DNA of 64,000 nt. Origin: an uncultured Luminiphilus sp. Lineage in GTDB: Bacteria; Pseudomonadota; Gammaproteobacteria; Pseudomonadales; Halieaceae. Shown here piece by piece: positions 1,536-24,654 of the stretch (the first letter of the stretch is position 1; every line of letters starts with the position of its first letter). Where the stretch lies: NCBI GenBank assembly GCA_943789425.1, contig CALSUB010000013.1:1-64000 (forward strand). Direction: 5' to 3'. The position numbers and the translations under genes were made by a program. Below the pieces are notes generated by a model. The model did not search any database. It was not told the DNA's origin and worked only from the letters and a program-made list of their open reading frames with translations.

Positions 1536-2387
1536 TCACGCTGACTGGAGCTCAGCAGACAGCCAATCTGCAGATTTCTGAATACCACCCAGTGGGAACA
1601 CGTGCACCTTTGAGATATTCGTCTTATCGTCATTTTTCAGCATGAGTTCGAGATCGCTAACTATCTCAACGGGCTCATAAGGTAAAAGTAATTTCGAGAT
1701 ATCTTTGGCTCGTTTCTGCAGCACTTTGAGGGAAGGACCAACACCGCACGAGATGGCAAATTTAATAAGCGTCTGCAACTTTGTCGGACCTGCAATACCA
1801 ATATGTATGGGCAGGGAAATACCGGCATGTTTTAGCGCCGCAGCCCATTCGTATACGGCCGTTGCACTGAACGAAAATTGGGTGACAATTGCCATTTCCG
1901 CGCTAGTTTGATCCGAGAATGCCTGCTTCCACCTCAGCGCATCACCGAGCGGATCACCAGAAGTGCCCGCATCAATATCTTTATTGCCTTCAGGATGCCC
2001 TGCGACATGAAAACGCTTGAAGTGATATTTATCGAATAATCCCGTTTCAAGCAGCTGCATCGAATCAGACAGGGCGCCCTGAGGTGCTTTCGGGCTCCCC
2101 GCCAGCAACAAAGCCTCAGATATGCCCGCTTCACCAGCATAAGATTGAATCCAGTTTTCCAGGGTACTCACGTCCTTCATCAATCGAGCAGGGAAGTGAG
2201 GCATGACTTGATAACCCGATTTCATCAGTCTGGCCGCCGCCGTCAGCATGTCTTTAAAATCGACACCCTCAATGTGTGCCAGATACACTCGCGTATCGGG
2301 TGGAAATAGCGTTTCCAAATTGTCAATCTTAGCCAAAGTCCGAGGCATGACCTCTATTGAAAAGCCCTCTAAAACGCTTGCTGTCAT
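1536..2387 (-). CDS. methylenetetrahydrofolate reductase-like protein
   Basis: A 283-residue protein of the MTHFR/MetF flavoprotein family (E. coli MetF is about 296). It shows the family's TIM-barrel order: an N-terminal 'FSIEVMPRT' segment (usually FEFFPPK/SIEVFP), 'VYLAHIEGVDFKDML', a central 'PHFPARLMKD', 'MAIVTQFSFSATAVYEW' (the QxxF strand), 'LPIHIGIAGPT', and an end close to 'VHVFPLGGIQKSADWL'. The predicted reaction interconverts 5-methyl- and 5,10-methylene-tetrahydrofolate. Next to a corrinoid/pterin methyltransferase locus, the oxidative direction (methyl-THF to methylene-THF) is the likely use. Such degenerate MTHFR proteins recur in C1 demethylation clusters. The gene stands alone on the minus strand with a weak ribosome site (AGGGT). 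The family is clear; the direction is inference. Confidence 0.82.
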   Translation of the reverse strand: MTASVLEGFSIEVMPRTLAKIDNLETLFPPDTRVYLAHIEGVDFKDMLTAAARLMKSGYQVMPHFPARLMKDVSTLENWIQSYAGEAGISEALLLAGSPKAPQGALSDSMQLLETGLFDKYHFKRFHVAGHPEGNKDIDAGTSGDPLGDALRWKQAFSDQTSAEMAIVTQFSFSATAVYEWAAALKHAGISLPIHIGIAGPTKLQTLIKFAISCGVGPSLKVLQKRAKDISKLLLPYEPVEIVSDLELMLKNDDKTNISKVHVFPLGGIQKSADWLSAELQSA

Positions 2388-3811: not shown

Positions 3812-5365
3812 ATGGCGAAACGCGCAGGGGGTAGGCAGGCACGAAAAGCCCAGCGAGCGGCACCCTTAGCAGCCAGAAATGAAGCCCGTCCGTCCCGGGT
3901 GAACGAGGCGGTCGTTACCATCCGTTTTCGGACCATGACTTAGCCGCCATCGTCGACAATGTCTTTCGTATTCTCGGCGAGGTGGGGTTCAAAGATGCCA
4001 CGCCGCATTGCATCGAAAAGTGTCAGGCAGTAGGTGCGCTGTGCTCGGCGAGGACGGTCGGCTTGCGGATGCCCAGAGCGGTCGTTGAGAACGCCCTCAA
4101 CGTCGCCAAACGCAATTTAACGCTGCACGCCCAAGATCCTGCCTATGATCTTGGACCTCTCGGGATCCAGAGTCCACTTTGCGACAGCGGGCGCAGCGGT
4201 GATGATTGCCGATTCAGCCAATAATCGATACCGCGAATCCACCACCCGCGATCTCTATGACCTTGCGCGTATTGCTGATAACTGCGAGCACATCCACCTA
4301 TTTCAAAGGATGTGTGTGCTGCGGGACCTCGACAACACCTATGAAATGGACCTCAACACCACCTATTGCTGTGTTGCCGGCACGCGCAAGCATGTCGGCG
4401 CGAGTTGGAGCAATTGTAATCATCTCGCCAAAGCACTTGAGATGCTGCATATCGTCGCCGGTGGTGAAGATCAGTGGCGCGCGCGCCCCTTTGTGAGCCA
4501 GTCAAATTGCTTCGTGGTCCCGCCCATGAAATTCGCCGAAGAAGCCCTCGAATGCCTGAGGGTCGCAGTAGAAGGCGGCATGCCCGTGCTTCTACTCTCA
4601 GCGGGCCAAGCAGGCGCCACCACACCCGCGACCCTCGCCGGTGCAGTGAGTCAAGCGTGGGCCGAGTGCTTGGGCGGTCTCGTTTATGTCAACGCCATCA
4701 AACCCGGTGCACCCGCTATCATTGGCGCATGGCCTTTTGTCTCCGATTTGCGCACGGGCTCCATGAGTGGCGGGTCACCCGAGCAAGGGACTGATTTCTA
4801 GTGGCTGCGCGCAATTAGGGCTGCACTTTGATCTTCCCTTTGGAACCGCCTGTGGCATGACCGACGCCAACATGCCCGACTTTCAAGCAGGCGCAGAGCG
4901 TGCCCACACGCTAATGCCACCGGCACTGGCCGGGGCCAATCTCATCTATGAATCGGCGGGCATGTACTCAAGCTTGTTGGGGGTGTGCCCCGAGAGCTTA
5001 TACTCGATAACGATGTGCTCGGTGCCACGCTGCGCGCAGTGCGGGGCATTGAGGTCAATGAAAGCACTCTGGGGTTTGCCGATCTTGCCGAAGTCTGCCT
5101 GGGCGAGAAAGGTCACTATTTAGGGTCTGATCACACCTTAGCCGTGATGCAAAGTGAGTACCTCTACCCCGAGGTGGGCAATCGCTTTAGTCCAACCGTG
5201 TGGGAGCAATCTGACAAGCCGCTGGCGCTAGACAATGCCATTCGAACGCGCGATGAAATCCTCGCCAACTATGTGCCAAGCCACATCAGCCCAGAAGTCG
5301 ACGCAGAGATTCGCGCCAAGTTTCCCATTCGGTTAATCACCGAGGACTTATTGCAAAGCGCCTAA
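3812..5365 (+). pseudogene. MttB-family (COG5598, non-pyrrolysine) methyltransferase, multiply frameshifted
   Basis: Joined across frames, this encodes a ~515-residue trimethylamine-methyltransferase-family protein. It has a basic N-terminus (MAKRAGGRQARKAQRAA), then YHPFSDHDLAAIVDNVFRIL, DLDLSGSRVHFATAGAAV, DLARIADNCEHIHLFQRM, VLLLSAGQAGATTPATLAGA, SGGSPEQ, AACGMTD-type 'GTACGMTDANMPDFQAG' and YLGSDHTLAVM. MttB family members move a methyl group from a quaternary or tertiary amine to a corrinoid protein. No amber codon falls where pyrrolysine would sit, so it belongs to the non-Pyl branch. Breaks lie near 3908, 4045-4065 (a compensating pair), 4155, 4790 and 5000. This is the most damaged gene in the window, so real decay is possible, although the intact residues between breaks are well conserved. 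It may be a second substrate-specific methyltransferase alongside the copy at 10909. Confidence 0.75.
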
Positions 5366-5525: not shown

Positions 5526-7972
5526 TTAACTGCGGATTTTTGAATTCTCTGGGTCATAAAGTGGCCGCAGCGATACTTCAGCCGCGATTTTTTCGCAGGC
5601 CACTTCCACCTCATAGTGCTCCCTCAAGGACGGCTTCGGCCGCCTCACCCGGGATAGCACTGACGTAACCCAAACCAACCGCCCCGCCTAAAGTGTGCCC
5701 GTAGGCACCCGAGGTGATGTGGCCCACCAGTGTGCCGTCCCGCCATATGGGTTCATTGTGGTACATCAGTGGTTCAGGGTCCTTCAACCGGAGCTGCACC
5801 AAGTGACGTGAGAGTCCTTTTTCGCGCTGCTCGAGTAGCGCTTCTCGCCCCACAAAGCCGCCTGGCTTATCCCACTTCACGACAAAATCGAGGCCCGCCT
5901 CCAAGGGCGAGTCCTCATCAGTAATATCGTGGCTCCAATGACGATAGGCTTTTTCGGTGCGCAGAGAGTTCAGCGCGTGGTAACCGGCATGAGCCAGACC
6001 CCATTCAGCTCCCGCCGCCACGATACGGTCATAGGTGTCCTGCATGAACTCCGTCGGGATGTAGAGCTCCCATCCCAACTCGCCAACAAACGTAATCCGC
6101 GACGCGCGCACATAGCCATAGCCCAGTTCAATCTCGCGACTGGTAGCAAAGGGAAACCCCTTGTGGCTCATGTCGTCAGGGGTCAACGACTGCAAGAGAT
6201 CGCGCGCCTTGGGGCCCATGATCGAGATGACGCCCAATCCCCGAGGTGACATTCGTTAAAACACAATGGGCGTCGTCGGGGATATGACGCTTAAGCCAAT
6301 AGAAATCCCGCACCTCTGTCTCGGCGGCGCTCACAATCATAAACGCGTGCTCGGTGAGTCGCGTCACGGTCAAATCGGCTTCAATCCCGCCGCGCTCGTT
6401 CAGCCATTGGGTGTACACGACCCTGCCCGGCGCCACATCAATATTATTGGCGCAAACGCGATTTAACACCGCCACGGTGTCGCGACCCTCGAAGCGAAAC
6501 TTCGCAAAAGACGACTGGTCAAATAACGCAACACCCTCGCGCACCGCGCGATGTTCTGCAGCGGAATGTTCAAACCAGTTCTGTCTGCCATAACTATAGT
6601 CATAGACCGGCTCGACGCCCTTCGGCGCATACCAGTTGGGTCGCTCCCAGCCGTAAGCTTCACCGTGGCAGGCACCCGCAGCGCGCAATCGATCATGGAT
6701 AGCGGCTTTACGAACGCCGCGAGCCGTCTCGTATTGGCGATACGGATAGTGTGTCGCGTATAGGAGACCGAGACTTTCGCCCACCCTCGATTGCAAATAG
6801 CGCCGGTTGCGCTGGAACGGCATGTTGCGCCGAACATCCACCTCCCACAAATCTACCGGGGGGCGCCCATCACGAATCCATTCGGCGGTCACCTTTCCCA
6901 CTCCGCCAGCAGATTGCAAACCAATTGAATTGAGCCCCGCTGCAACGAAGCAATTTTTCAGCTCCGGTGCCTCGCCCAGGTGGTAACGCACGTCGGGCGT
7001 AAAACTCTCAGGACCACAGAAAAATTTCTGAATACCCGCACGTTCAAGCGCCGGGAATCGCTTCATGGCGTCGTGCAGCACCGGCTCAAAATGATCAAAA
7101 TCACCGGCGATCTCATCAAAGCAAAAGTCCTCCGAAATACCGCCCATTCCCCAAGGCTTCGCACTCGGCTCAAAGGCGCCTAACAGCAGCTTACCGGCAT
7201 CATACTTATAGTAGGTGCAGGCATCGTAATCCCGCAGCACGGGTAAATCAGGGTGTAACCCCTCGACCGATTCAAACAGCACGTAATAATGTTCGCAGGC
7301 GTGCAGCGGCAGGTTCACGCCGACCGTAGACGCCAAATCTCGCGACCACATGCCGCCGCATATGACCACGTATTTTGCCTGTATCTCGCCCCGATCAGTG
7401 CGCACACCGGTGATCTGCCCTCCCTCATGGAGGATCTCGTCGACCTTGGTATGGGTTGCAATGCGAACACCGCGACCCTTAGCCCCTTTCGCTAAGGCCT
7501 GCGTAATGTCGACCGCATTGGCGTAACCATCAGAGGGAATATGAATGCCACCAAATAAGTCATCCGTCTGAATCAGCGGGTAGCGTTCAGCAATCTCTGC
7601 TACCGAGAGCACGTTCACTTCGAGGCCAAACACCTTAGCCATGGAGGCACTGCGCTTGAGTTCCTCAAAGCGTTCGGCGGTCGCCGCAATCGACATCGAG
7701 CCACACTGTCGGTAGCCCGTCGCCTGCCCCGTCTCTGCCTCTAGTCCTCGATACAATTCACTCGTGTACCGTGCCAGCTTGGTCATATTGATCGAGCTGC
7801 GTAACTGTCCGACTAAGCCTGCCGCATGCCAAGTCGTGCCGCTGGTCAGCTCTTTGCGCTCTACCAACACCACGTCTTGAATACCGGCTTCAGCGAGGTG
7901 ATAAGCGACTGAGACGCCAATCACGCCGCCGCCAATCACAACCACCTCACAACGATCGGGTAAGGGCGTCAT
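5526..7972 (-). CDS. dimethylglycine/sarcosine dehydrogenase-like FAD-GcvT protein (B), frameshifted
   Basis: About 814 residues when joined. The N-terminal FAD-dependent oxidase domain has GGGVIGVSVAYHLAEAG (residues 14-30) and 'SGTTWHAAG', with the histidine near residue 49 that in this family holds FAD covalently. The C-terminal half is a GcvT/aminomethyltransferase folate-binding domain (GLGVISIMGPKARDLL, GELGWELY, NSLRTEKAYRHWSHDI). Such proteins oxidise N-methyl groups of dimethylglycine, sarcosine or related amines and pass formaldehyde-level carbon to THF. Two breaks were found, at a C4 run at 6239-6242 and near 5617. Beyond the second, the frame continues through YEVEVACEKIAAE and LRPLYDPENSK to a stop at 5526. 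The start ATG overlaps the upstream paralogue's TGA by one base, implying coupled translation and perhaps a two-enzyme sequence. Confidence 0.85.
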
Positions 7973-10395
7973 CAGCTCATCAACCGCTGATTAGTCGGGT
8001 CATAAGCAGGATCAGTGAGCACTGTCGCTTGGCATCGAGCATCCAGCAGACCCACTTCTAACCGCGTCCCCAACACCGCTTGCGCCGGCGGTACATATCC
8101 AAAACCCAGACTCTGTTCTACCGCATAACCATAGCCACCCGAAGTGGTCACACCGACGCAGTCATCGCCGACAAATATCGGCTCGCCCCCCCGGACATCT
8201 GCATTCATAGCGTCCACCGAGAAGTAGACGAGCCGCAGTGGCCCGGCCTCCTGGGTTTCGGTGGCTGACTTACCAATAAAGTCATCTTTTTTATCATTAA
8301 AGAAACGCGCCATATCGGCCTCGAGCATCGTAACCTCATTAGTGAGCTCGGCACCCCAGCCGCGATAGGCTTTTTCCATGCGCAAGCTATTGAGTGCGTA
8401 CAAACCAAAGTTAGCAATACCATGTGCTTGGCCCGCCGCCCACACTGCGGCGTAAAGCGCTTCGAGATCTGCCATTTGCGGGTGCAACTCCCAGCCCAAC
8501 TCGCCCACATAGTTTATCCGCAGTGCCAGCGTCTTGACGCCCGCGATGTCGATCTCTTGTGCGCTGCGCCAAGGGAAAGACGCGTTATCCAGCGGCGTAT
8601 CCGTCAGTGTTGCGAGTAACTCCCGAGAACGCGGACCGGCCACAACCATCACGCCTCGTTGCTCGGTGGCATTGGTAATCTCAACCGCTTCGCCCTCCTC
8701 CCGCTGCTGCAACAAGTGATCCAAGTCACGCAGTTCAGCGCTAGCCGCCGATAACAAGTAAAAGTGATCCTCGGCGATTCGCGTGACGGTGGCCTCCCCT
8801 AAGATACGGCCCTGACGCGATAAGAAGTGTGCCAAGGCCATACCGCCGTCGCGTTTGGGCATGCGATTCGCCAACAGCCGGTTTAAAAACGCCTCGGCGC
8901 CGGCGCCGCGGACCGTATATTTTGCGAATCCGGTCATATCGATCACACCCACCCGATCTCTGACTGCTTCGCACTCCGCTCGCACCACCTCAAACACATT
9001 ATTGCGGCGGTAGCTGCATTCCTCTTCGCGGCCATCAAGGGAAAACCATTGCGGCCTTTCCCAACCAAATGTCTGCGTAAAAACTGCGCCTTGTTCTGCC
9101 AGCTTGGCATGCAGCGGACTCAGCCGGCAGTCCCGCGCCGCCGAAAATTCCTCTCCCGGTAACGGCGTGGCGTAGGTCAGTCCATAATCTTGGAAGCCCT
9201 TTTCCCGCATATAATGCCGATCGGCAAAGTCTCCAAACCGCCTCGGGTCGAACCCTGTCATATTGATTTCAGCGTCACCATGAATCATCCACTGGGCGAG
9301 ATACTTCCCGCACCCGGCCCCCTGAGCAATACCAAACGAGGAACCACAGCAGAGCCAAAAGTTCTCTAGGCCCGCAACAGGGCCCAGCAGTGGCGGGCCA
9401 TCCGCCGAATGAGGAATGGCGCCATTAACGATGCGTTTGATACCCGCTTCTAACATGGGCGGCATGCAGTTCATGGCCCGCTCAAGCCAAGGCATTAACC
9501 GGTCCAGATCGTCCGGAAATAACTCACTGTCCGAGGACCAAGGCGGCAGCCCGTCCGGACCCCAGGCCTCGGTCAGTCCGGTGGATTCATAAATACCAAT
9601 CAGGCCTGATTTCTGTTCTTGCCGAATATAAGCCGAGGCATAGGGGTCACGCATGACCGGGAATTCTTCATCGCGATCGATAAACTCTTGAATCGCGCCG
9701 GTGACAATATAGTGGTGTTCCATATTGGCAATCGGCACATCGGCGCCGACCATCTGTGCCACCTGGCGAGCAAAACTGCCCGCCGCATTGACCACGATCT
9801 CTGCCGTGACCTTGCCCAGTTCGGTATCGACCTCCCACTCGCCGGAAGGCAAACGATTGATATCGGTCACGCGGTTATGACGCACGATTTTGACGCCCAT
9901 ATCGGTGGCGCCGCGGGCCATCGCGTTGGTGAGCCCCGAGGGGTCAGCGTGGCCATCGTCTAATGTCCAAGCGCCCGCTATGACGCCATCGATATCGTAA
10001 AAGGGATTGAGTTCTTTAATCTTTGCCGCGTCGATGATTTCCATGTGGAAACCGACGTTGTCAGCGATACCCTTCATATAATGAAACCAGTCAAGATCGG
10101 CTTGTTGACGCGCGACACGAATGCCGCCAGACGCATGCCAACTCACATATTGGCCGGTCTTTTCTTCCAGCGTCGGATACAGCCTATTACCGTAATCGTG
10201 GATCTTGGCTAGATTGTAATTGCTCACCAAACTCGGGCACTGGCCTGCGGCATGCCAAGTCGATCCCGAGGTCAATTCCCCCTTCTCGATCAACATGACA
10301 TTGGTTTCACCTTCTTCGGCGAGATGGTAAGCCAACGCCACCCCCATAATGCCGCCGCCAACAATCACGATTCGGGCTTGTGAATTCATGGACAT
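7972..10395 (-). CDS. dimethylglycine/sarcosine dehydrogenase-like FAD-GcvT protein (A)
   Basis: An intact 807-residue protein. It has an N-terminal Rossmann motif (VGGGIMGVALAYHLAEEG), then SGSTWHAAGQ with the predicted flavin-linking histidine (residue 48), and a C-terminal GcvT domain (NRMPKRDGGMALAHFL, VAGPRSREL, YVGELGWELHPQ, NSLRMEKAYRGWGAEL). The predicted role is oxidative N-demethylation of a secondary or tertiary amine with transfer of the C1 unit to THF. Two in-frame ATGs lie six bases apart (10395 and 10389). The AAGAAGGG ribosome site sits at normal distance from the second and is too close to the first, so 10389 may be the true start. It is the first gene of the A-B operon and is divergent from the corrinoid operon at 10909. 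The substrate cannot be fixed from sequence. Confidence 0.9.
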   Translation of the reverse strand: MSMNSQARIVIVGGGIMGVALAYHLAEEGETNVMLIEKGELTSGSTWHAAGQCPSLVSNYNLAKIHDYGNRLYPTLEEKTGQYVSWHASGGIRVARQQADLDWFHYMKGIADNVGFHMEIIDAAKIKELNPFYDIDGVIAGAWTLDDGHADPSGLTNAMARGATDMGVKIVRHNRVTDINRLPSGEWEVDTELGKVTAEIVVNAAGSFARQVAQMVGADVPIANMEHHYIVTGAIQEFIDRDEEFPVMRDPYASAYIRQEQKSGLIGIYESTGLTEAWGPDGLPPWSSDSELFPDDLDRLMPWLERAMNCMPPMLEAGIKRIVNGAIPHSADGPPLLGPVAGLENFWLCCGSSFGIAQGAGCGKYLAQWMIHGDAEINMTGFDPRRFGDFADRHYMREKGFQDYGLTYATPLPGEEFSAARDCRLSPLHAKLAEQGAVFTQTFGWERPQWFSLDGREEECSYRRNNVFEVVRAECEAVRDRVGVIDMTGFAKYTVRGAGAEAFLNRLLANRMPKRDGGMALAHFLSRQGRILGEATVTRIAEDHFYLLSAASAELRDLDHLLQQREEGEAVEITNATEQRGVMVVAGPRSRELLATLTDTPLDNASFPWRSAQEIDIAGVKTLALRINYVGELGWELHPQMADLEALYAAVWAAGQAHGIANFGLYALNSLRMEKAYRGWGAELTNEVTMLEADMARFFNDKKDDFIGKSATETQEAGPLRLVYFSVDAMNADVRGGEPIFVGDDCVGVTTSGGYGYAVEQSLGFGYVPPAQAVLGTRLEVGLLDARCQATVLTDPAYDPTNQRLMS

Positions 10396-10908: not shown

Positions 10909-12453
10909 ATGAGCGAGCGAGCGAGCAGACGAAAAGGCGGAGGTCGAGCTGGACGAAGAGAGGCTCGCGCCGATAGCTGCGCCCGCCACCGCACCTTTTA
11001 TCGAGCGAAAGATTCCCTACGTTGAGATTCTCAGCGAAGAAAACCTTGAGCTGATCGAGCACAACGCTGACCGACTGCTGAGCGAAATTGGCATCGACTT
11101 TCTCGACGACCCGGAAGTCTTAGATTTATTTCGCGAAGCCGGTGCAGAGGTCGACGGGACGCGGGTCCGGTTCCCAGCGGGGATGTGCCGGCAAATCATT
11201 CAAGCCAGCGCGCCAAGCGAGTATGTGCAACATGCGCGAAACCCCGCTCGCAGCGTGACCATTGGCGGTAAGCGCACCGTGCTGGTGCCCGCCTATGGCC
11301 CTCCCTTTCGTGCACGACATCGACAAAGGCCGACGCTACGCCACCATCGAAGATTTTGAGAATTTCGTCAAACTCGCTTACATGGCGCCAGGGATTCATC
11401 ACTCGGGTGGCACCGTCTGTGAGCCCGTTGATCTGCCGGTCAACAAGCGCCACTACGACATGCTGTATAGCCACTTTAAGTATAGCGACAAGCCCCTGAT
11501 GGGCTCGGTCACTCATTGGCGCCGCGCTCAAGACTCCGTCGACATGGCAAAAATCGTCTTTGGCGATGAGTTTGTTGACCAAAACTGTGTGCTCACCAGC
11601 TTGATCAACGTCAACTCTCCTTTGGTCTTTGATGGCACCATGCTGGGCTCACTGAAAGGTCTATGCCCGCAATAACCAATCCACGGTGATATCGCCCTTT
11701 ATTCTTGCCGGTGCGATGTCCCCAGTGACGGTTACCGGTACGCTAACTCAAATTCTGGCTGAGGCCCTAGCTGGCATCACCCTGACGCAACTGATTCGCC
11801 CCGGCTGCCCCGTGATTTTTGGCACGTTCGCAGCGGCAGTGTCGATGGCAACTGGTGCGCCTACTTTTGGGACTCCCGAGCCCAGCATGGTGATTTATGC
11901 CGCCGCCGCACTGGCACGCAGGCTTGGCGTCCCCTTTCGGAGTGGCGGCGGACTCTGTGGATCCAAGCTACCCGATGCCCAGGCGGCTTATGAAGCGGCG
12001 AATACATTACAAACCGCGGCACTGGCAGGGGTGAACTTCATGCTTCATACCGCTGGCTGGCTCGAAGGCGGTCTGGCAATGGGCTATGAGAAATTCATCA
12101 TGGACTGCGATCAGGCAAGTATGATTTCGGTGCTCTTGCAGGGCGTCGATATGTCCGAGAATGCGCAGGCGATGGACGCCTTTGCAGAAGTGGGTCCTGG
12201 AAAGCATTTTCTCGGATCAGCCCACACGCTCACTAACTTTGAAACGGCCTTTTATCGCTCGACCGTCGCCGACAACAACAGCTATGAGCAGTGGTCGGCG
12301 GAAGGCAGTTTAGACTCGGCTCAGCGAGCCAATGTCTTGTGGAAAAAAATGCTGGCGGAGTACGAAGCCCCTGAGTTAGATCCCGCCATCGACGAAGCGC
12401 TACAAGCTTTCATGACGACTCAAAAAGCATCTTTCGCCGATCGAGATTATTAA
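10909..12453 (+). CDS. MttB-family (COG5598, non-pyrrolysine) corrinoid methyltransferase, frameshifted
   Basis: About 514 residues after joining. It has an arginine/glycine-rich N-terminus (MSERASRRKGGGRAGRREAR), then PFIERKIPYVEILSEENLEL, IEHNADRLLSEIGIDFLDDP, FVHDIDKGRRYATIEDFENF, YARNNQSTVISPFILAGAMS, 'GAPTFGTPEPSM', 'GLCGSKLPDAQAAYEAANTL' and 'GPGKHFLGSAHTLTNFETAF'. The family transfers a methyl group from quaternary amines (glycine betaine for MtgB, TMA for Pyl-MttB) to a corrinoid protein. Its direct partner, the corrinoid protein, begins 18 bp downstream after a GAGGAGAG ribosome site. Breaks lie near 10960, 11305 (CCCTTT) and 11657 (AAAGG). The intact downstream operon argues for indel errors. 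The substrate is unknown; betaines are the best guess. Confidence 0.85.
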
Positions 12454-12471
12454 AAGAGGAGAGCCACTTCC

Positions 12472-13173
12472 ATGTCAGATGACGAAGACGATATTGTCCT
12501 TTCAGAACTCTCGAATGAGGATCTCGTGCAACAAATGCACGATGACCTGTATGACGGCCTAACGGAAGAGATTGAAGAAGGCACTCGGATTTTGCTGGCA
12601 CGTGAGTGGTCTCCAGAGGACGTGCTCGGCAAGGCATTGGTCGACGGCATGACCATTGTCGGCATCGACTTTCGCGACGGTATCTTGTTTGTTCCCGAGG
12701 TCTTGCTGGCTGCCAACGCCATGAAAGGCGGTATGGCGATATTGCGCCCACTGCTCGCGGAGACCGGTGCCAAGCCTGTTGGCACAATGGTCATTGGTAC
12801 GGTCAAAGGCGACATTCATGACATTGGCAAAAACCTCGTCTCGATGATGCTGGAAGGCGCGGGGTTTGAGGTCTTTGACATCGGCATCAACAACGCCGTT
12901 GAGGATTATTTAGCGGCGATCGAACAGCACAAACCAGACATTTTGGGCATGTCTGCCCTGCTCACGACCACCATGCCTTATATGAAGGTAGTGATCGATA
13001 CGCTGGTCGAAAAAGGACTGCGCGAGGACTATATCGTGCTGGTGGGCGGCGCCCCACTCAACGAGGAATTTGGTCAGGCTGTTGGCGCTGATGCCTACTG
13101 TCGTGACGCAGCAGAAGCGGCGACCACGGCCATCCGCATGGTCAGTGAACGCCGTCTGGCGCAGAGCGCCTGA
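12472..13173 (+). CDS. corrinoid (B12-binding) methyl carrier protein
   Basis: An intact 233-residue protein of the MtbC/MttC type. The N-terminal helical cap domain (residues about 10-95, 'LTEEIEEGTRILLAREWSPE', 'FVPEVLLAANAMKGGM') is followed by the Rossmann-like cobalamin domain with GDIHDIGKN. Its His116 is the predicted lower cobalt ligand (DxHxxG). 'MSALLTTT' (the SxL motif) and 'VLVGGAP' (the GG motif) complete the signature. It should accept methyl from the MttB-like protein and pass it to the pterin-dependent methyltransferase encoded at 14241. The N-terminus is unusually acidic (SDDEDDIVLSELSNED). Confidence 0.93.
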   Translation: MSDDEDDIVLSELSNEDLVQQMHDDLYDGLTEEIEEGTRILLAREWSPEDVLGKALVDGMTIVGIDFRDGILFVPEVLLAANAMKGGMAILRPLLAETGAKPVGTMVIGTVKGDIHDIGKNLVSMMLEGAGFEVFDIGINNAVEDYLAAIEQHKPDILGMSALLTTTMPYMKVVIDTLVEKGLREDYIVLVGGAPLNEEFGQAVGADAYCRDAAEAATTAIRMVSERRLAQSA

Positions 13174-13184
13174 CCTTCTCGGCG

Positions 13185-13815
13185 ATGATGGGAGCCACTC
13201 TAATCATCGCCTGCGGCGCACTCGCGCGGGAAATTGACGCGCTGAAGCGCGCCAATGGATGGGACCAGCTGCAGGTGCAATGTCTTGACGCCGCCCTGCA
13301 CAACCGCCCTAAATCGATTCCCGCCAAAGTCGAGGCTTTGCTCGAAAAGCACTTTCATCAATACGAACGCGTCTTTGTGGCTTACGCCGACTGTGGCACT
13401 GGCGGTGCACTGGATACGGTGTTGGCGCGATGGGGCGTCAGCCGTCTCCCCGGCGCTCACTGTTACGAGGTCTTTGCGACGTCACCCGTGTTCCATGCGC
13501 TTGCAGCCGCAGAGCCCGGCACCTTTTACTTGACCGATTTCTTAGCCCGACACTTTGACCGATTGGTCATCGAGGACCTAAAACTGGATACGCACCCAGC
13601 ATTACAGGACATGCTCTTTGGTCATTACCAGCGAGTCGTCTACCTGGCCCAAACAGACGATCCAGACCTCCGCGCCAAAGCGCAAAAAGCGGCAGACCGA
13701 TTAGGGCTCTGCTTTTGAGGTGCTCGAGACCGGATTAACAGCGTTGCAAGCCGCATTAGCCCCGCAAGTTCTTCACTTTGATCATGACCGTGAGGCCCAC
13801 CATGCAACGCATTGA
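13185..13815 (+). CDS. DUF1638 protein, frameshifted
   Basis: About 209 residues after joining across a T4 run at 13713-13716. It shows features of DUF1638: an N-terminal 'LIIACGALAREID', 'LQVQCLDAALHNRPKSIPAK', 'VFVAYADCGTGGALD', 'HCYEVFATSPVFHAL', 'GTFYLTDFLARHFDRLV'. The true C-terminus (EVLETGLTALQAALAPQVLH) lies in the next frame and ends at 13815. The conserved cysteines and histidine (ACGA, ADCGTGG, HCYE) suggest a metal or corrinoid-related function, but none is established. DUF1638 genes commonly travel with MttB/corrinoid genes. It begins 11 bp after the corrinoid gene and overlaps the next gene by 14 bp, so it is an integral operon member. Confidence 0.8.
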
Positions 13816-14111
13816 TATTTTGTGGCGCGATATTCCCTCGCAAGTCCTGATTAAGCGTGGCCGAGATCGTGGTAAGTACATGCTGAGCGCGCGCTTCCAA
13901 GAGGCGATAGACCGCGCTGCCATGCGAGCCGGCAAGGGCGGCAGTGACGCCTACCTCGATGAATGGCGACGGGTCACCACCGCGATAGAGGCCGAAGGCG
14001 CACTGGCAGATATCGCAGCCGCAACTCGGTCAAGCAATTGAAGCGCAGTACTCTGACGAGGACATCACCCGGCTTGCCAAGCAAAATGGCTACGCTGAGC
14101 CTAACTCATGA
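13802..14111 (+). CDS. PF13769 'virulence factor' domain protein, frameshifted
   Basis: About 102 residues after joining across a break near 14025. 'DILWRDIPSQVLIKRGRDRG', 'ELxxRFQEAIDRAAMRAG' and 'GSDAYLDEWRR' mark the small PF13769 domain, which carries the family name virulence factor without biochemical basis. The C-terminus, EAQYSDEDITRLAKQNG, continues to 14111. Its start overlaps the DUF1638 gene. I recall such proteins in C1-transfer operons beside corrinoid proteins and pterin methyltransferases, so a helper role in demethylation (for example chaperoning or electron transfer) is more plausible than virulence. Confidence 0.75.
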
Positions 14112-14240
14112 GGTCGGCCAGACGCGGGTCCCTATGCAGGCGCAATGGCTCAACGTATTTTACAAATCAATAAAAACCGCACCGCCACCTTCATTCCTAT
14201 TTTCTTCTTTCATTACTATTTTCTGCATTAGGCGATCCTC

Positions 14241-15146
14241 ATGACAATAACGACGATTAGTTCAGCCACTCGGGAAGTTCATATGGGCTTCGATCAACGC
14301 TTTGTGATTATTGGGGAGCGGATCAATCCAACCGGTCGCAAAATTTTGGCCGAAGAAATGAAAAATGGGGACTACAGCCGTGTCGAGTCTGACGCGCTGG
14401 CGCAGGTTGCAGCGGGCGCCCACATGCTCGATGTCAACGCGGGGATTCCGCTGGCGGATGAGCCACGTATTTTGGCGGAAGCCATTCAACTGGTTCAGTC
14501 GATCACCGATGTCCCACTGAGCATTGATTCCTCTATCGTCGAAGCACTGGAGGCGGGTCTTGCCGTTTATCAGGGAAAAGCACTGGTCAATTCAGTCACG
14601 GGTGAGGATGAAGTGCTAGAGCGGGTGCTACCCTTGGTCGCCAAACACAAGGCGGCTGTTGTGGCGATCTCTAATGATGAGACCGGTATCTCAGAGGATC
14701 CCGACGTGCGCTTCGCGGTCGCAAAAAAATTGTCGAGCGCGCCGCTGACTACGGGATACCCTATAGCGATATTGTTGTGGATCCCCTCGTGATGCCAATT
14801 GGTGCGATCAATACTGCCGGCTTGCAGGTCATGGCGCTGGTGCGACGCCTGAGAGAGGAGCTCAAAGTGAATACCACCTGTGGCGCCTCTAACGTGAGCT
14901 TTGGTCTGCCTAATCGTAATGGCATTAACTCGGCCTTTCTTACCATGGCGATGGGTGCTGGCATGACCTCCGCGATTACCAGCCCCATGCATCCAGAAGT
15001 GATGCAGGCTGTGCGCGGTGGCGACGTTATGATGGGGCATGATCCCAACTGTACGCATTGGATTCGCGCCTATCGTGAACCCGCTGCTGAGGGTGAGGGG
15101 ACGTGGTGGCAGAGCTGGACGATCGGGACGTCGTAGGAGCGCGTGA
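14241..15146 (+). CDS. methyltetrahydrofolate:corrinoid methyltransferase (pterin-binding), frameshifted
   Basis: A ~301-residue pterin-binding TIM barrel related to AcsE, MtgA and the MetH pterin domain. It shows 'FVIIGERINPTGRKILAEEM', 'GAHMLDVNAGIP', 'DVPLSIDSSIVEALEAGL', 'ALVNSVTGE', 'DIVVDPLVMPIGAINTAG', 'NTTCGASNVSFGLPNRNGIN' and 'MAMGAGMTSAITSPMHPEV'. It should move methyl from the corrinoid protein to THF, giving methyl-THF for the MTHFR/formate branch. One break lies at A7 (14723-14729), where the family needs one more base. A second near 15097 brings back an arginine/glycine-rich tail ending at 15146. The start at 14241 is chosen because residues from TTISSATREV onward match the family. 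129 bp separate it from the preceding gene. Confidence 0.88.
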
Positions 15147-15149
15147 ATC

Positions 15150-17181
15150 TTGGGTGAAAGCGATGTCAAAGTGCTCTTCATGCCCTCGGGAAGACGGGGG
15201 TTTTTTCCGCGCGGTACGCCTCTTTTAGACGCTGCACGGAGCCTAGGCGTCGACATCGACTCGGTCTGTGGTGGCCGAGGACTCTGCGGGCGCTGCCAAA
15301 TCAGTTGCGTGACGGGGTCTTTTGCCAAACACCAAATCGAATCCGACGTCGATCACCTCTCCCCTTTCTGCGCGACCGAGGTCAAATTTGTCGAGCGAAA
15401 AGGCCCTTTAAAAGAGGGCCGTCGGCTCAGTTGTCACACCACACTACTCGACGATGCCGTCATCGATGTGCCCGCTGAGAGTCAGGTGCACCGGCAGATC
15501 GTGCGCAAAGAAATGGAATCTCGCGATATCCGTCTCGATCCCGCTACACGGCTCTACTACGTGCAGATTGGCGAGCCGACGCTGGAAGATCCCCGCGGTG
15601 AACTGCAACTGTTAATCGAAGCACTCGAAGCCGATTGGGGTGTGACCGGCCTCACGTTGGCCCATTCACAGCTGCAGCAAATTCAGGCGGCACTGACACG
15701 TGAGGATCGCGGTGTCACGGTCGCGATCTATCAGGAGCGCCTGATTACCGGTATCTGGCCGGGGCTGTTTGAGCAGCCGCGGGGTATCGCCATTGACGTG
15801 GGCTCCACCACGGTCGCGGCGCATCTTTGTGATTTAAAAACCGGAGAGGTGCTTGGCCTCTGCCGGCGTGATGAACCCGCAAATTCGCTATGGCGAAGAT
15901 CTGATGAGCCGAGTCTCATATGTGATGATGCACCCCGAAGGTGCAGAGCTGCTCACCCTCGCCATCCGCGAAGCAATCAATGGCCTATTGGTGGAGTTGA
16001 GTGAGCAAGCCTCAGGCGACATCAACGATATTTTAGAAATTGCCCTGGTGGCGAACCCCATCATGCATCATATTTTGCTGGGCATTAACCCGGTCAACCT
16101 CGGCACAGCGCCCTTTGCGCTCACCACCAGCGACCCGATCGACACCCGCGCCATCGAAGTGGGACTGATCGCGCATCCTGAGGCACGACTGTATTGCCTG
16201 CCGTGTATTGCGGGCCATGTGGGAGCGGATGCTGCCGGGGTCATTTTGGCCGAGGCACCCCATCGCGGGGAGGGCATGACACTCGTCGTCGATGTCGGCA
16301 CCAATGCTGAGATCGTGCTCGCCAATCAGGAGCGCCTACTCGTGTGTTCGAGCCCCACTGGACCCGCTTTCGAAGGCGCGCAAATTAGCAGCGGCCAGCG
16401 CGCCACCATGGGCGCCATTGAGCGCGTTCGCATCGACCGAGACACACTGGAGCCGCGCTTCAAATGTATCGGCAGCGATCTGTGGTCTAACGAAGCAGGG
16501 TTTTCAGAGGCGATGTCCGGCCACGGTGTCACCGGTATCTGTGGGTCCGGCATCATTGAAGTGGTGGCGGAGATGTATCTTGCTGGTGTCATCACGCCCG
16601 AAGGTGTGGTCGACGGAAGCTTGACCGAGCAAAGCACCCGGATTCGCCAAGAGGGCCGCACTTGGTCCTATGTGCTGCATCACGCCGAGACGGCGGATGA
16701 ATCTGATGTGGTGATCACCCAAAATGATGTGCGGCAAATCCAACTGGCTAAAGCGGCACTCTACGCGGGTATCAAACTCCTGATGGATGAAATGGGGACC
16801 CCCTCGGTCGATCGAATTCGCCTAGCAGGTGCCTTTGGTAGTCATATCAGTGTCAGTCACGCGATGGTACTGGGACTGATACCTGATTGCGATCTAGAAC
16901 ACGTGACTTCAGCCGGCAACGCTGCCGGTGCGGGCGCCCGCATGGCGCTGTTGGACCGCAACGCCCGACTCGAGATTGCCGATACCATCCGCACGGCGGA
17001 GCGGATCGAGACGGCAGTGGCACCCGAGTTCCAAAGCCATTTTGTCGGAGCAATGGCCCTACCACATCAGAGCGACGCGTTTCCGAATCTGTTCTCTCAG
17101 GTTGACCCACCCAAAGCCAAGACGACCGCACCGGGCGATTCACCTAAGCGTCGTCGTCGAAGTAACCGCTCGAACGGCTAA
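15150..17181 (+). CDS. ferredoxin-ASKHA corrinoid reductive activase (RamA-like/DUF4445), frameshifted
   Basis: About 676 residues. The N-terminal 2Fe-2S domain has CGGRGLCGRCQ and a later 'LSCHT'. A linker is followed by the DUF4445 ASKHA ATPase: 'IAIDVGSTTVAAHLCDL', 'SAGVMNPQIRYGEDLMSRVS', 'LPCIAGHVGADAAG', 'LVVDVGTNAEIVL', 'GPAFEGAQISSGQRA', 'IRLAGAFGSHI' and 'AGNAAGAGARMALLD'. Such enzymes use ATP and a low-potential electron to return inactive Co(II) corrinoid to Co(I). The start is probably TTG at 15150, ten bases after GGAG (15136-15139); the next in-frame ATG falls inside the conserved N-terminus. One break lies at 15853. The arginine-rich tail (KRRRRSNRSNG) is unusual. It is the last gene of the operon. 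Confidence 0.9.
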
Positions 17182-21017: not shown

Positions 21018-22050
21018 CTAATTCAATAGCTCTGCTTCTTCAGAGGGCAGCTCTGATTCGAAGATCTTGAAGATCTGCGTCTCACCCTGAATGCGATCGC
21101 TCTTAGGGGATACCCCCATGTATTTTCGGTAACAACGACTGAAAGTGTGTGGTGGATACGAATCCACACATCGACGTGATTTCGACAATCGAACGAGACG
21201 TTTGCTTGAGCAGACGGCGCGCCCGGTCGAGTCGTAATTTTAAGTAGTAACGTGACGGGGTACTGTGGAGATGCTTTAAAAACAGTCTTTCTAACTGCCG
21301 TCGGGACAGGCTGACATAATCCGCTAGCTCTTGCAGGGTAATAGGCTCTTCAAGATTAGCCTCCATTAACTGCAACACCTCTTTGAGCTTGGGCTGCATG
21401 TCTGCCTTTCTCGACCACATCGGAATGACCTGCATCTCAGCGTCTGACCGGTGCCGCTCGCAGACCAGCATGTCTGCCACACCATCGACCAGCGATTGCG
21501 GATGCCGCTTGGCGATCATCGCCAACATCATATGCAAAGGAACCGTGCCCCCGGTACAGGTCAATCGATCTCGATCAATCGTATACAAGTGGGAGTTGAA
21601 ATCGATGGCAGGGAACTGTTCGGTCAGCAGCGTTAAGCAATCCCAGTGGGCGCTGCATTGGTACCCGTTCAATAATCCAGCGCTGGCCAGCGCATACGAC
21701 CCCGTGCACAGCGCACCGAGCTGCGCGCCCTTCTGCGCCTGCTTGCGCAGCCAGGCCAAATCAGATCGCTGCACACTCTGTTCAATGTCAATTCCGCCCA
21801 CGACAATCACCAGGTCGAAATCTGCTTCATCCGAAAGGGTGTAATCGAGGGTGACACGAATACCATCACTGCTCACCTGATCTCGCTCTCCTGAGCCAAT
21901 CAAATGCCAGCTATACAGAGCGGTGTCCGAGAGCAAATTGGCAACGCGTAAGGGGTCGATGGCACTGGAGAGTGAGATCAACGTGAATTGATCCATCAAC
22001 AAAAAGCCCACGCGCTTGGGAGGAGCGTTAAACGTCCGCGTGTGCTCCAT
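21018..22050 (-). CDS. GlxA-family AraC-type transcriptional regulator (GbdR-like)
   Basis: About 343 residues. The N-terminal DJ-1/PfpI (class I amidotransferase-like) domain shows 'VGFLLMDQFTLISLSSAIDP', 'FDLVIVVGGID', 'LGALCTGSYALASAGLLNG' and 'CTGGTVPLHMMLAMI'. The C-terminal AraC double helix-turn-helix shows 'ITLQELADYVSLSRRQLERL', 'RYYLKLRLDRARRLL' and 'EITSMCGFVSTTHF'. A break near 21142 truncates the apparent frame. In the right frame it continues as FSRCYRKYMGVSPKSDRIQG and ends at 21018. This architecture is that of GbdR, SouR and CdhR, which sense glycine betaine, sarcosine or carnitine. It lies 33 bp after dehydrogenase C and is a good candidate for the 21-bp-spaced operators. 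Confidence 0.88.
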
Positions 22051-22083: not shown

Positions 22084-24654
22084 TCAGCTTCTGACGCGTT
22101 CGTTGGCAGGATCGAGCAGCGCTCGATAGCCGACAGAGACGATTTTGGCCGGAAAGAAACAGCCAAAATACTCCATTAGCACCGTCTCGCCCTCAACAGC
22201 ACGATCAGTGGGGAGGTACCCCATCGCGATATTCTGGCCTAAAGACGGTCCAAAAGCGACACTTGTGGTGTAAGAACGACGCCCATGGGTATCAATGATC
22301 ACTTCTTGGGTCTCTGGATCGAGCAAAGGCCAGTGTCCAACCGGGTAGCGGACCACGCCGTTTTCGTCGGTCGTATCCTCGAGTACCAAGGTACACAGGT
22401 AGGCCGCCTGTTCGGGTAATTCACGCTGAGCCACGTAGGCGTCTTTGCCGTGAAAGTCTGCGGCTTTGACTTTGGGCCGCGATAATCCGGCCTCATAAAG
22501 GTTGTAGTCAGTCTCTAAGTCATCGTTTTGTAGCCGTAAACTCTTCTCCAGACGCCGGCTATTGGCGTAAGTCTCGATACCGACGGGCGTGACATCCAGT
22601 GCGAACAGCGCGTCCCATAAGCCAAGACCCTCGCTGAAGGGGAAGTAAAGCTCCCAGCCTTGCTCACCGACGTAAGAGATACGGAAAGCCCACACCGTCA
22701 CGCCCTGAACGTTGATTTCCTTTGCCGTGGCATAGGGGAACGCGTCGTGGGAGACGCTCTCGGGATCATCCATAAGCTTTTGCAACGTGGCTCGGGCTTC
22801 AGGTCCCCAAAGGCCCAGCGTGGCAATCTGCTCGGTCTGGTCGACGAACGCCACATCACTCAGCGCCAGCTTGTCGCACATCCGCTTCATCCAAATGTAA
22901 TCCCGATGTCCCGTATCACCGCCGCAAATAACCCGAAAGCTGTCCTCGGTGAGACGGATAATCGTTAAGTCGGAGTGAATGCCGCCGGTTTGATCGAGGA
23001 AGTGAGTGTAAACACCCTTACCAATGGGGGTATCGGTACCCACTTTGGCTACTGAGCAAAATTCGAGCAATGCCTCAGCATCCGCACCCACCACATCGAA
23101 AATGGCGAAGTGAGACAAGTTGATCATGCCCACACCGTCACTCAGGGCGAGGTGCTCCGCGTTGGAGACTTCCCAGAAGTGTCGGTTATCCCACTCTGCA
23201 GCGCGCGTCGGTACGCGATCGCGGTAGGTCTGAAGCAACGTGGCTTCATTCGCAGCGTAGCCATAGGCACGTTCCCATCCGGCCACTTCCATGAAGTAGC
23301 CGCCCAGCGCCACTTCGCGCTCATAAAACGGGCTGGTGCGCATTTGCCGCGACGACGCGTAAGGCTCTCGCGGATGGACCGCTGGCGTGTAGATCTTTTG
23401 CGCCACTTCATAACTGCGGTTGCGAATAAACTCATCGGTCAGCTGCACCGGGTAATGGCGCGCGGGATCAACCCCGTGCGGATCCATTTCAGTGCGCCCT
23501 TGGGTCATCCAGTCCGCCAGTAATTTACCGGCGCCCGGGCCGTCTTTTACCCATACGGCCTCGCATAACCAGAGGCCTCGAACGTCTGGTGCCTCACCGA
23601 TAATCGACCCGCCATCCGTCGTGACTGACAGCAACCCATTGAAAGAGCGACGCTCCTCCCAAGGCAAATCCGCCAATACGGGCGTCAGCTCAACGGACCG
23701 CTCAAAGGCCTCGATGACTTGATCCAGCGTCAAATCATTCATAGAAGGCGACATTCGAGCGTCTTCGGGTTCTGAAATCGCCCTCGCCTCAACAATACGC
23801 GGCTCAAAAGGCTCGTAATAACCCCACTCTAATAACCCGCCCTCTGGCGTGGTCGGATCGCCGGTATCGCGCACATAAGCAGAGTTGCCTTGATCGCGAA
23901 ACAACGGATAAACAATGTCTTTGCCCGTGCCCTCAAGCGCATCCCAAGGTCCGAAAAATAGCAGCGGGTGTTCCACAGGCATTAACGGCAATTTAACCTT
24001 TGCCGTCTCTGACACCAGCGAGCCCCAAATGCCGGCGCACAGCACAACGTAGTCCGCCATGATGGTGCCTTTGGCGGTTTTCACGCCCACGGCTCGGCCG
24101 TTTTCGACAATAATCTCTTCCGCGGGGGTATAGGGAAAGGCTTGCAGCTTGCCTGCCGCGACGGCCTCATCCACAAGATCACCCGCGACACTTTGCGATC
24201 GGGGGGTCACGAGGCCCGCGTCGGGATCCCACATGGCGCACTCGATGGTGTCTTCTTCTAGTAACGGAAAGCGCTCTTTGGCTTCTGCAGCAGTGATCAT
24301 GTGTGCGTTGGTGCCAAAGGCCTTACCCGAGGCCACCTTGCGCAGCAGTTCTTGCACTTGGGCATCGTCGCCTTTGCGCGCAACTTCCATACCACCGATC
24401 TCAATAAAATTGCCCCGAGATTTATAGAACTCACGGCTGTAGGTGCTGGTGAAAACCGTTAACTTGTCATGAGAGGTCATGTAACAAAAATCAGATGCAT
24501 GCGAAGTTGAGCCAATGTCCGTTGGTATCGCCGACTTTTCGAGTCCAACGATGTCATCCCAACCGGCTTCGACTAAGTGATGCGCCACCGAGGCACCCAC
24601 AATGCCCCCTTGACCAACGATCACGACTCGCGCTTTTTCAGGTAAAGCTGCCAT
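22084..24654 (-). CDS. dimethylglycine/sarcosine dehydrogenase-like FAD-GcvT protein (C)
   Basis: An intact 856-residue paralogue of A and B with a diverged active site. The dinucleotide loop is GQGGIVGASVAHHLVEAG. The flavin-linking region is 'GSTSHASDF' (histidine 52) in place of 'TWHAAG', so FAD attachment may persist but the neighbouring residues differ. The GcvT half contains 'SYVGEQGWELYFPF', 'NSRRLEKSLRLQNDDL', 'VAFGPSLGQNIAMGYLP' and an end at 'RALLDPANERVRS'. The predicted role is oxidative demethylation of another N-methyl amine. It is the first gene before the GlxA/AraC regulator, with operator-like site B about 165 bp upstream, and follows the formate dehydrogenase operon. Confidence 0.88.
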   Translation of the reverse strand: MAALPEKARVVIVGQGGIVGASVAHHLVEAGWDDIVGLEKSAIPTDIGSTSHASDFCYMTSHDKLTVFTSTYSREFYKSRGNFIEIGGMEVARKGDDAQVQELLRKVASGKAFGTNAHMITAAEAKERFPLLEEDTIECAMWDPDAGLVTPRSQSVAGDLVDEAVAAGKLQAFPYTPAEEIIVENGRAVGVKTAKGTIMADYVVLCAGIWGSLVSETAKVKLPLMPVEHPLLFFGPWDALEGTGKDIVYPLFRDQGNSAYVRDTGDPTTPEGGLLEWGYYEPFEPRIVEARAISEPEDARMSPSMNDLTLDQVIEAFERSVELTPVLADLPWEERRSFNGLLSVTTDGGSIIGEAPDVRGLWLCEAVWVKDGPGAGKLLADWMTQGRTEMDPHGVDPARHYPVQLTDEFIRNRSYEVAQKIYTPAVHPREPYASSRQMRTSPFYEREVALGGYFMEVAGWERAYGYAANEATLLQTYRDRVPTRAAEWDNRHFWEVSNAEHLALSDGVGMINLSHFAIFDVVGADAEALLEFCSVAKVGTDTPIGKGVYTHFLDQTGGIHSDLTIIRLTEDSFRVICGGDTGHRDYIWMKRMCDKLALSDVAFVDQTEQIATLGLWGPEARATLQKLMDDPESVSHDAFPYATAKEINVQGVTVWAFRISYVGEQGWELYFPFSEGLGLWDALFALDVTPVGIETYANSRRLEKSLRLQNDDLETDYNLYEAGLSRPKVKAADFHGKDAYVAQRELPEQAAYLCTLVLEDTTDENGVVRYPVGHWPLLDPETQEVIIDTHGRRSYTTSVAFGPSLGQNIAMGYLPTDRAVEGETVLMEYFGCFFPAKIVSVGYRALLDPANERVRS

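What the first reader, a model, noticed from the sequence alone, without database searches (positions are those of the whole stretch)
10909..17181. Complete corrinoid demethylation operon in a probably aerobic gammaproteobacterium
Six genes in order: MttB-like methyltransferase, corrinoid carrier (His116 motif), DUF1638, PF13769, pterin-dependent methyltransferase and ferredoxin-ASKHA activase. Spacing is tight, with overlap at 13802-13815 and a 3-bp gap at 15147-15149. That is everything needed to move methyl from a quaternary amine to THF, including ATP-driven corrinoid repair. Known systems of this kind are mainly anaerobic, while the neighbours here (Rieske oxygenases, PhyH, MiaE) are O2-dependent.
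Basis: partly seen in the sequence, partly recalled or inferred. Interest (0 to 1): 0.75.

Follow-up and report, generated by a model that had tools for sequence, protein, structure and literature searches.

The report
Aerobic B12-dependent glycine betaine demethylation operon
A marine, oxygen-breathing bacterium carries a vitamin-B12-dependent gene set that most likely strips a methyl group from the common osmolyte glycine betaine; the same kind of system was described in marine bacteria in 2025, so this is a good new example rather than a surprise.

Summary
Five of the six are interrupted by eight single-base frame breaks, but relatives carry intact copies and dN/dS is at most 0.088: most likely assembly errors. 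The biochemical reading holds; the "surprise" does not. Mausz et al. 2025 (PMC12478193) showed MtgC and MtgD essential for glycine betaine use in aerobic Ruegeria pomeroyi and reported the genes in marine Gammaproteobacteria; Price et al. 2018 (PMC5764234) linked the activase and DUF1638 to B12 reactivation. Added here: glycine betaine is the likely substrate (conserved predicted contacts, GbdR-like regulator, dimethylglycine/sarcosine-dehydrogenase-like, MetF2-, Fhs- and FDH-like neighbours); a second, divergent MttB lacks three of four contacts; CobS is absent from 37 of 37 same-genus genomes; PF13769 ("virulence factor") and this MtgC occur in the same 15 of 276 class genomes, adjacent in 14, so PF13769 looks like an undescribed part; DUF1638 has five invariant Cys/His. 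Verdict: new member of a known kind.

The parts
10909..12453 (+). MttB1 = MtgB-type quaternary amine:corrinoid methyltransferase (513 aa in L039, L040, L041, L053, L057); three frame breaks here
   Evidence: PF06253 in 3 pieces; PDB 4yyc E=4e-220, 2qne/9yce (MtgB) ~1e-126 for the intact relative L041; predicted betaine residues present in the window pieces
12472..13173 (+). MtgC corrinoid carrier, 233 aa, intact; GDIHDIG motif with His116
   Evidence: PF02607 + PF02310; 100% aa identity in G012; 80% to four Ruegeria loci; motif in alignment
13185..13815 (+). DUF1638 protein (209 aa in L038, L039, L040), one frame break; Cys10, Cys33, His39, Cys70, His92, Cys93 present
   Evidence: PF07796; conserved Cys/His; motifs in the window piece
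13802..14111 (+). PF13769 'virulence factor' protein (about 102 aa in relatives), one frame break
   Evidence: PF13769 55.9 bits; same 15 of 276 class genomes as MtgC
14241..15146 (+). MtgD-type methylcorrinoid:THF methyltransferase (301 aa in L038/L039), two frame breaks
   Evidence: PF00809 and NF005719 in two pieces
15150..17181 (+). RACo/RamA-like ASKHA activase with N-terminal 2Fe-2S domain (CX5CX2C), one frame break
   Evidence: PF00111, PF17650, PF17651, PF14574; Cys motif
3898..5365 (+). MttB2: second, divergent MttB-family gene, several frame breaks; lacks three of the four predicted betaine residues, so probably another substrate
   Evidence: PF06253 pieces; intact 515-aa copy in L041; 26% identical to MttB1; alignment to MtgB
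5611..7972 (-). FAD/GCV_T dehydrogenase (dimethylglycine/sarcosine dehydrogenase-like), frame-broken in its C-terminal part
   Evidence: DAO + FAO_M + GCV_T; 814-aa intact homologues in L040 and L041; breaks
7972..10395 (-). second FAD/GCV_T dehydrogenase, 807 aa, dimethylglycine/sarcosine dehydrogenase-like
   Evidence: DAO + FAO_M + GCV_T + GCV_T_C
1536..2387 (-). divergent MetF-like gene (MetF2 type) that would oxidise methyl-THF
   Evidence: no Pfam match at E<=0.001; weak TIGR00676 hit, 21 of 294 bits; 56% identical over 278 aa to the gene between PF13769 and mtgD in Pseudorhodobacter turbinis
21103..22050 (-). GbdR-like regulator of glycine betaine metabolism
   Evidence: NF052371 437 bits, just under its 480-bit cut-off
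22084..24654 (-). third FAD/GCV_T dehydrogenase, 856 aa
25078..29939 (-). formate dehydrogenase gene group (only the molybdopterin subunit at 25078-27156 was HMM-tested; other subunits named by eye from the ORF list)
   Evidence: PF00384/PF01568/PF04879; other ORFs
29936..30775 (-). FdhD formate dehydrogenase accessory protein
   Evidence: TIGR00129 148 bits, over its cut-off of 141; NF001943 234 bits, under its cut-off of 269
30775..32331 (-). formate-THF ligase (Fhs)
   Evidence: PF01268 814 bits

Best explanation
The operon is an aerobic MtgBCD glycine betaine demethylase. MttB1 (MtgB) transfers a methyl group from glycine betaine to cob(I)alamin on MtgC, giving dimethylglycine. MtgD moves the methyl from MtgC to tetrahydrofolate. 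When the cobalt is oxidised to cob(II), the 2Fe-2S/ASKHA activase, helped by DUF1638 and perhaps PF13769, reduces it back at the cost of ATP. Methyl-THF is oxidised by the MetF2-type enzyme; dimethylglycine and sarcosine are demethylated by the FAD/GCV_T dehydrogenases; the C1 units leave through Fhs and formate dehydrogenase as CO2. B12 is probably imported. Shown here: gene content, order, conservation, key residues, lack of CobS in the same-genus genomes held. Inferred: substrate, direction of flux, roles of DUF1638 and PF13769, B12 import.
For: All six families by Pfam HMM. Four residues predicted to bind betaine in D. hafniense MtgB (Y94, N199, R309, H345; PMC6855144, passages) are conserved in MttB1 (alignment; motifs in the window itself; at least 95% of 42 relatives). 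GbdR-like regulator. Dimethylglycine/sarcosine-dehydrogenase-like genes, Fhs and FDH in the same window. MetF2-type gene. BCCT transporter on the same contig with the glycine betaine BCCT model as its best NCBIfam match, under cut-off. MtgC, DUF1638, PF13769, MTHFR, pterin and ASKHA genes next to glycine betaine ABC transporter genes in Azoarcus pAZKH. Genetics and proteomics of the R. pomeroyi system (PMC12478193).
Against: No biochemical test on any gene of this organism. The fifth predicted contact (F353) is Gly in MttB1, with a Trp nearby instead; the residue list comes from docking, not from a ligand-bound structure. The two NCBIfam MtgC models score far below their cut-offs (198 of 370; 168 of 310). 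The MetF2-type gene has no Pfam match and GbdR is under its cut-off. As assembled, only MtgC of the six is uninterrupted. No methionine-synthase acceptor domain (PF02574) was found in this 80%-complete genome, so the dual role shown in R. pomeroyi is unsupported here.
Confidence: 0.8

Rival explanations
1. The module demethylates another quaternary amine (for example proline betaine, carnitine, gamma-butyrobetaine or a choline derivative), and glycine betaine demethylation is done elsewhere, for example by a Rieske GbcAB oxygenase.
For: MttB-superfamily members differ in substrate, and E. limosum encodes 42 of them (PMC12155760, passages). Two Rieske oxygenases in the window match the GbcA model far below its cut-off (94 and 130 of 670 bits); for the one at 48339 it is the best NCBIfam match. 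F353 is not conserved.
Against: Four of five predicted betaine contacts conserved; GbdR-like regulator and dimethylglycine/sarcosine-dehydrogenase-like neighbours; the closest homologue in the PDB with a named substrate is MtgB (the nearer 4yyc is only 'putative').
Confidence: 0.12
2. The main role is methionine synthesis (split MetH: MtgC + MtgD with MtgE), not catabolism.
For: [quoted passage not shown] pomeroyi, and their counterparts in P. inhibens too. 17 of 23 same-genus genomes with MtgC show no MetH-length frame, many of them incomplete (read).
Against: No PF02574 acceptor found in the window's genome, 80% complete; the operon begins with MttB, a donor-side enzyme, and sits with betaine-catabolic genes. 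The other six of the 23 have MetH beside MtgC.
Confidence: 0.05
3. The operon is a decaying pseudogene cluster: the frame breaks are real.
For: Eight single-base frame breaks in five of six genes.
Against: dN/dS 0-0.088 in all ten pieces compared, intact genes in relatives, similar breaks in neighbouring genes.
Confidence: 0.03

Closest known systems
Aerobic MtgBCD(E) of Ruegeria pomeroyi DSS-3 (Mausz et al. 2025, PMC12478193)
   Same: MtgB (PF06253), MtgC (PF02310), MtgD, RamA-like activase, DUF1638 and MetF2; MtgC is 80% identical to that of four loci from three other Ruegeria species (R. pomeroyi itself was not in the list); genes for the later demethylation steps near mtgBCD in marine Gammaproteobacteria are reported there
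   Different: One operon here, dispersed in R. pomeroyi; PF13769 lies in the operon here and a search of that paper for 'virulence factor' found nothing; no MtgE found in this incomplete genome; a second divergent MttB is present (several PF06253 genes per genome are reported there too)
Split methionine synthase with B12 reactivation proteins of Phaeobacter inhibens (Price et al. 2018, PMC5764234)
   Same: MtgC/MtgD-type subunits, DUF4445 (RACo-type) activase and DUF1638
   Different: There the acceptor is homocysteine; here a donor methyltransferase (MttB1) leads the operon
Anaerobic MtgB/MtgC of Desulfitobacterium hafniense and Methanolobus vulcani (PMC6855144, passages)
   Same: Non-pyrrolysine MttB family; four predicted betaine contacts kept
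   Different: The two curated MtgC models score below cut-off
Sinorhizobium meliloti Ak57 pSymB (L155) and Azoarcus KH32C pAZKH (L154) gene groups
   Same: MtgC, DUF1638, 'virulence factor', pterin methyltransferase and ASKHA protein in that order; S. meliloti also has a divergent MttB gene and bmt nearby
   Different: MTHFR genes lie inside those groups, and in S. meliloti other genes too; in the window the MetF2-type gene sits 8.5 kb upstream of MttB1; no MttB gene in the 12.6-kb Azoarcus stretch read

Membership tests
Aerobic MtgBCD glycine betaine methyltransferase | PF06253 methyltransferase without pyrrolysine | tested here: met
   PF06253 122/177/408 bits; no in-frame TAG in the C-terminal piece; pyrrolysine-type model at most 195 of 525 bits for a piece
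Aerobic MtgBCD glycine betaine methyltransferase | MtgC of the roseobacter type, distinct from anaerobic MtgC | tested here: met
   80% identity to four Ruegeria loci, 38% to Acetoanaerobium, below both NCBIfam MtgC cut-offs; judged by identity only, no tree built
Aerobic MtgBCD glycine betaine methyltransferase | MtgD pterin-binding methyltransferase | tested here: met
   PF00809 over cut-off; NF005719 best but under cut-off for the two pieces
Aerobic MtgBCD glycine betaine methyltransferase | RamA-like activase and DUF1638 | tested here: met
Aerobic MtgBCD glycine betaine methyltransferase | MetF2 paralogue | tested here: inconclusive
   window 1536-2387 is 56% identical to the gene between PF13769 and mtgD in P. 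turbinis, but has no Pfam match and was not compared with SPO1862 itself
Aerobic MtgBCD glycine betaine methyltransferase | MtgE homocysteine module for the dual function | tested here: inconclusive
   no PF02574 in the own genome, 79.6% complete; 50 of 58 genomes of the relatives set have some PF02574 protein, MetH and other homocysteine methyltransferases included
Aerobic MtgBCD glycine betaine methyltransferase | glycine betaine demethylation in vivo or in vitro | not testable with these tools
   needs bench work
Pyrrolysine MttB trimethylamine methyltransferase | in-frame amber codon for pyrrolysine and TIGR02369 score over cut-off | tested here: not met
   (the score is for frame pieces)
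Anaerobic-type MtgC (NF047995/NF047996) | score over the curated cut-off | tested here: not met
   168 of 310 and 198 of 370 bits
RACo-type corrinoid activase | N-terminal 2Fe-2S domain, linker, middle and ASKHA C-terminal domains | tested here: met
   (Raco_middle split by a frame break); CX5CX2C motif

The most novel reading that the evidence does not exclude
PF13769, annotated 'virulence factor', is in proteobacteria a dedicated part of the aerobic corrinoid methyl-transfer machine. Together with DUF1638, an alpha/beta protein with an invariant Cys/His set near the predicted strand ends, it would form an undescribed metal- or corrinoid-handling unit that loads, shields or re-reduces MtgC so that the cob(I) chemistry can run in air.
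Probability: 0.4. Interest if true: 0.55.

Novelty: new member of a known kind. Interest (0 to 1): 0.3.

Why it matters
It extends a recently described B12-dependent route for a major marine osmolyte, as one operon, to a gammaproteobacterial genus that looks unable to finish B12 synthesis; the window's own genome also has bacteriochlorophyll genes. It points to two conserved proteins without a known function (DUF1638, PF13769), one carrying a misleading 'virulence' name, as testable parts of how a super-reduced cobalamin enzyme survives oxygen.

Tried and rejected
Pyrrolysine MttB: rejected (no amber codon in the C-terminal frame piece, model score far below cut-off). Pseudogene reading: rejected as unlikely. 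Fold-based clue to DUF1638 and PF13769: the models are confident (pLDDT 94.2 and 92.7), but Foldseek against the PDB gave no match at E<=0.001 for either, and DUF1638 has no clear sequence relative in the PDB (best E 0.52). Model coordinates were not in the Python box, so whether the Cys/His residues cluster in space was not tested. The first dN/dS run, against L040, was saturated at synonymous sites for four of eight pieces and was repeated against L039. No tree of MttB or MtgC was built.

Against the PF13769 reading: it is not confined to MtgC genomes, since the control Bacillus subtilis has a match over cut-off. Paracoccus aminovorans plasmid IV (L157) has the operon without it in the 18.6 kb read. 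Of the 80 MtgC loci, 32 show none by HMM within the stretch held; by their titles 28 are Rhodobacterales, one another alphaproteobacterium and three Gammaproteobacteria (L091, L093, L119). In Pseudorhodobacter turbinis it lies with mtgD and a MetF instead of with MtgC.

Literature: PF13769/pfam13769 is in 0 papers of the held library, DUF1638 in 3; two further searches gave nothing on PF13769 and corrinoids. The library holds open-licence papers only.
Full report
Observation. The six genes are present at 10909-17181 on the + strand in the order given. Pfam: MTTB (three pieces), B12-binding_2 + B12-binding, DUF1638, PF13769, Pterin_bind (two pieces), and Fer2/RACo linker/middle/RACo C-terminal (two pieces). 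NCBIfam models point the same way for the MttB, corrinoid, pterin and activase genes, but every score lies under its cut-off, several queries being frame pieces, and there is no NCBIfam match for DUF1638 or PF13769. The window is contig C13:1-64000 of an 18-contig, 1.70-Mb, 79.6%-complete genome.

Frame breaks. Only mtgC is an uninterrupted frame. Aligned with an intact close relative (L039), the operon shows eight single-base frame breaks in five genes. Single-base differences also occur in the neighbouring MttB2 and SDH1 genes (against L040, a more distant relative) and at 17835 and 17951 (against L038). Seven relatives listed by ORF carry full-length genes except at contig ends (lengths from the first possible start codon: MttB 513-546 aa, MtgC 231-238, DUF1638 201-251, PF13769 101-123, MtgD 298-317, activase 673-678; cut by a contig end: MttB of L038 and activase of L040). 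dN/dS between window and L039 is 0-0.088 in all ten pieces compared. The most economical reading is assembly error over genes under strong purifying selection.

What it is. MttB1 (intact copy in L041) matches PDB 4yyc (E=4e-220; I recall, not from a call, that this is the S. meliloti protein) and the D. hafniense MtgB structures 2qne/9yce (about 1e-126). From the alignment I read that the four residues proposed by docking to bind glycine betaine in MtgB (Y94, N199, R309, H345; PMC6855144, passages) are kept as Y129, N233, R343 and H379 in L041 numbering; I inferred that the PDB chain is numbered one higher than the paper. Each is at least 95% conserved in 42 MttB1-type sequences, and all four motifs are in the window's own pieces. 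F353 is replaced by Gly, with a conserved Trp four residues after the His. MtgC has the D-x-H-x-x-G corrinoid motif at H116. The activase has the CX5CX2C 2Fe-2S motif.

Setting. Between the operon and a second MttB gene (3898-5365) lie two FAD/GCV_T dehydrogenases that I read as dimethylglycine/sarcosine dehydrogenase-like; a third is at 22084. A regulator at 21103-22050 scores 437 bits to GbdR (cut-off 480). Fhs and an FDH molybdopterin subunit are at 25-32 kb, with FdhD between them. The gene at 1536-2387 has no Pfam match and only a weak MetF match, but is 56% identical to the gene between PF13769 and mtgD in Pseudorhodobacter turbinis. A BCCT transporter (best NCBIfam model: glycine betaine uptake BCCT, 384 of 650 bits) lies on the same contig. 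MttB2 is 26% identical to MttB1 and in the alignment with MtgB lacks the Tyr, Arg and His of the four, so its substrate is probably different.

Organism. COX1 is an uninterrupted frame. bchG and bchP, over their cut-offs, lie on the same contig, which suggests an aerobic anoxygenic phototroph. The best named match of MtgC is a Halieaceae MAG (87%); the placement is tentative, since records near the window's genome may be left out of that list. CobS is absent from 37 of 37 same-genus genomes, the window's included, two of them single-contig and 98% complete; 11 of the 58 genomes in the whole set have it, all outside the genus. A PF01923 adenosyltransferase is absent from the own genome. B12 import is therefore likely; BtuB was not searched.

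Distribution. Of these, 61 loci are at least 18 kb long; by tblastn DUF1638 is near MtgC in 57 of 61, PF13769, MtgD and the activase each in 34, an MttB in 26, all five in 24 (19 shorter loci not counted). In the genus, 23 of 37 genomes have this MtgC, counting two split or cut copies and one fragment (read). In a class sample of 276 genomes, MtgC (E<=1e-60) is in 15 and PF13769 over its cut-off in 15, the same 15 (one further genome has a sub-cut-off PF13769 hit). By coordinates they lie within 1.5 kb in 14 of 15; in G183 they are on different contigs. DUF1638 is in 23, among them all 15. The genomes are related, so these are not 15 independent events. Controls: of 14 named genomes, PF13769 is found in B. 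subtilis and DUF1638 in Methanosarcina acetivorans. On plasmid records, 8 of 8 with PF13769 also carry an MtgC of at least 70% identity, but 7 of the 15 records with MtgC at 60-80% show no PF13769 on the same replicon.

Known or not. Mausz et al. 2025 (PMC12478193: introduction, results and discussion sections read; outline and passages) show that MtgC and MtgD are needed for glycine betaine use and for methionine synthesis in R. pomeroyi, with RamA, DUF1638, MetF2 and two PF06253 proteins more abundant on N-osmolytes, and report genes for later demethylation steps near mtgBCD in marine Alpha-, Gamma- and Deltaproteobacteria. Price et al. 2018 (PMC5764234: passages) tie the DUF4445 activase and DUF1638 to B12 reactivation and say that they have no specific proposal for DUF1638. 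The finding is thus a clear member of a known kind.

What remains open. DUF1638 has five Cys/His that are invariant in 49 of 49 aligned relatives (C14, H43, C74, H96, C97 of L070), plus C37 at 90% or more (in the fuller set of 79 all six are at 95% or more). In the predicted alpha/beta model most of them fall at or just after strand ends, which suggests a site, but distances were not measured. PF13769 has an invariant W-R and other residues in 34 of 34 aligned sequences. Neither model matches a solved fold at E<=0.001. No paper in the held library names PF13769.

Methionine. The own genome shows no PF02574 domain and no PF01717 match; the near relatives G012 and G032 have one PF02574 protein of 312 aa each and PF01717 proteins of 381 and 368 aa (open-frame lengths). 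With 69-83% completeness this is only a hint that this sublineage differs from the R. pomeroyi model.

Noticed in passing
window 3898-5365; intact in L041:3588-5135: Second, divergent MttB-family gene (26% identical to MttB1) lacking three of four predicted betaine residues; 5 such full-length genes, against 56 MttB1-like ones, in the 105 loci scanned. Substrate unknown.
   Followed up: partly
G000:C13:104.5-108 kb (L151): bchG and bchP on the same contig as the operon: aerobic anoxygenic phototrophy genes.
   Followed up: partly
G000-G036 (same genus): No CobS in 37 of 37 genomes: the genus appears to be a B12 auxotroph, although 23 of the 37 carry the MtgC of a B12-dependent catabolic system.
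   Followed up: partly
G000, G012, G032: Neither MetH nor a ~340-aa PF02574 protein found in these three related genomes (80, 83, 69% complete); two of them have PF01717 (MetE-like) frames of 368-381 aa. The methionine synthase of this sublineage is unclear.
   Followed up: no
L039, L040, L041 versus window 14111-14241: Some relatives carry an extra gene between PF13769 and mtgD, a PF02219 MetF where tested (L039), absent from the window, L038 and L059; other loci carry a different, MetF283-type gene in that slot: a replaceable MetF2 slot.
   Followed up: partly
window 17997-19397 and 48339-49685: Two Rieske oxygenases whose weak matches include the glycine betaine monooxygenase model (94 and 130 of 670 bits); true substrates unknown.
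   Followed up: no
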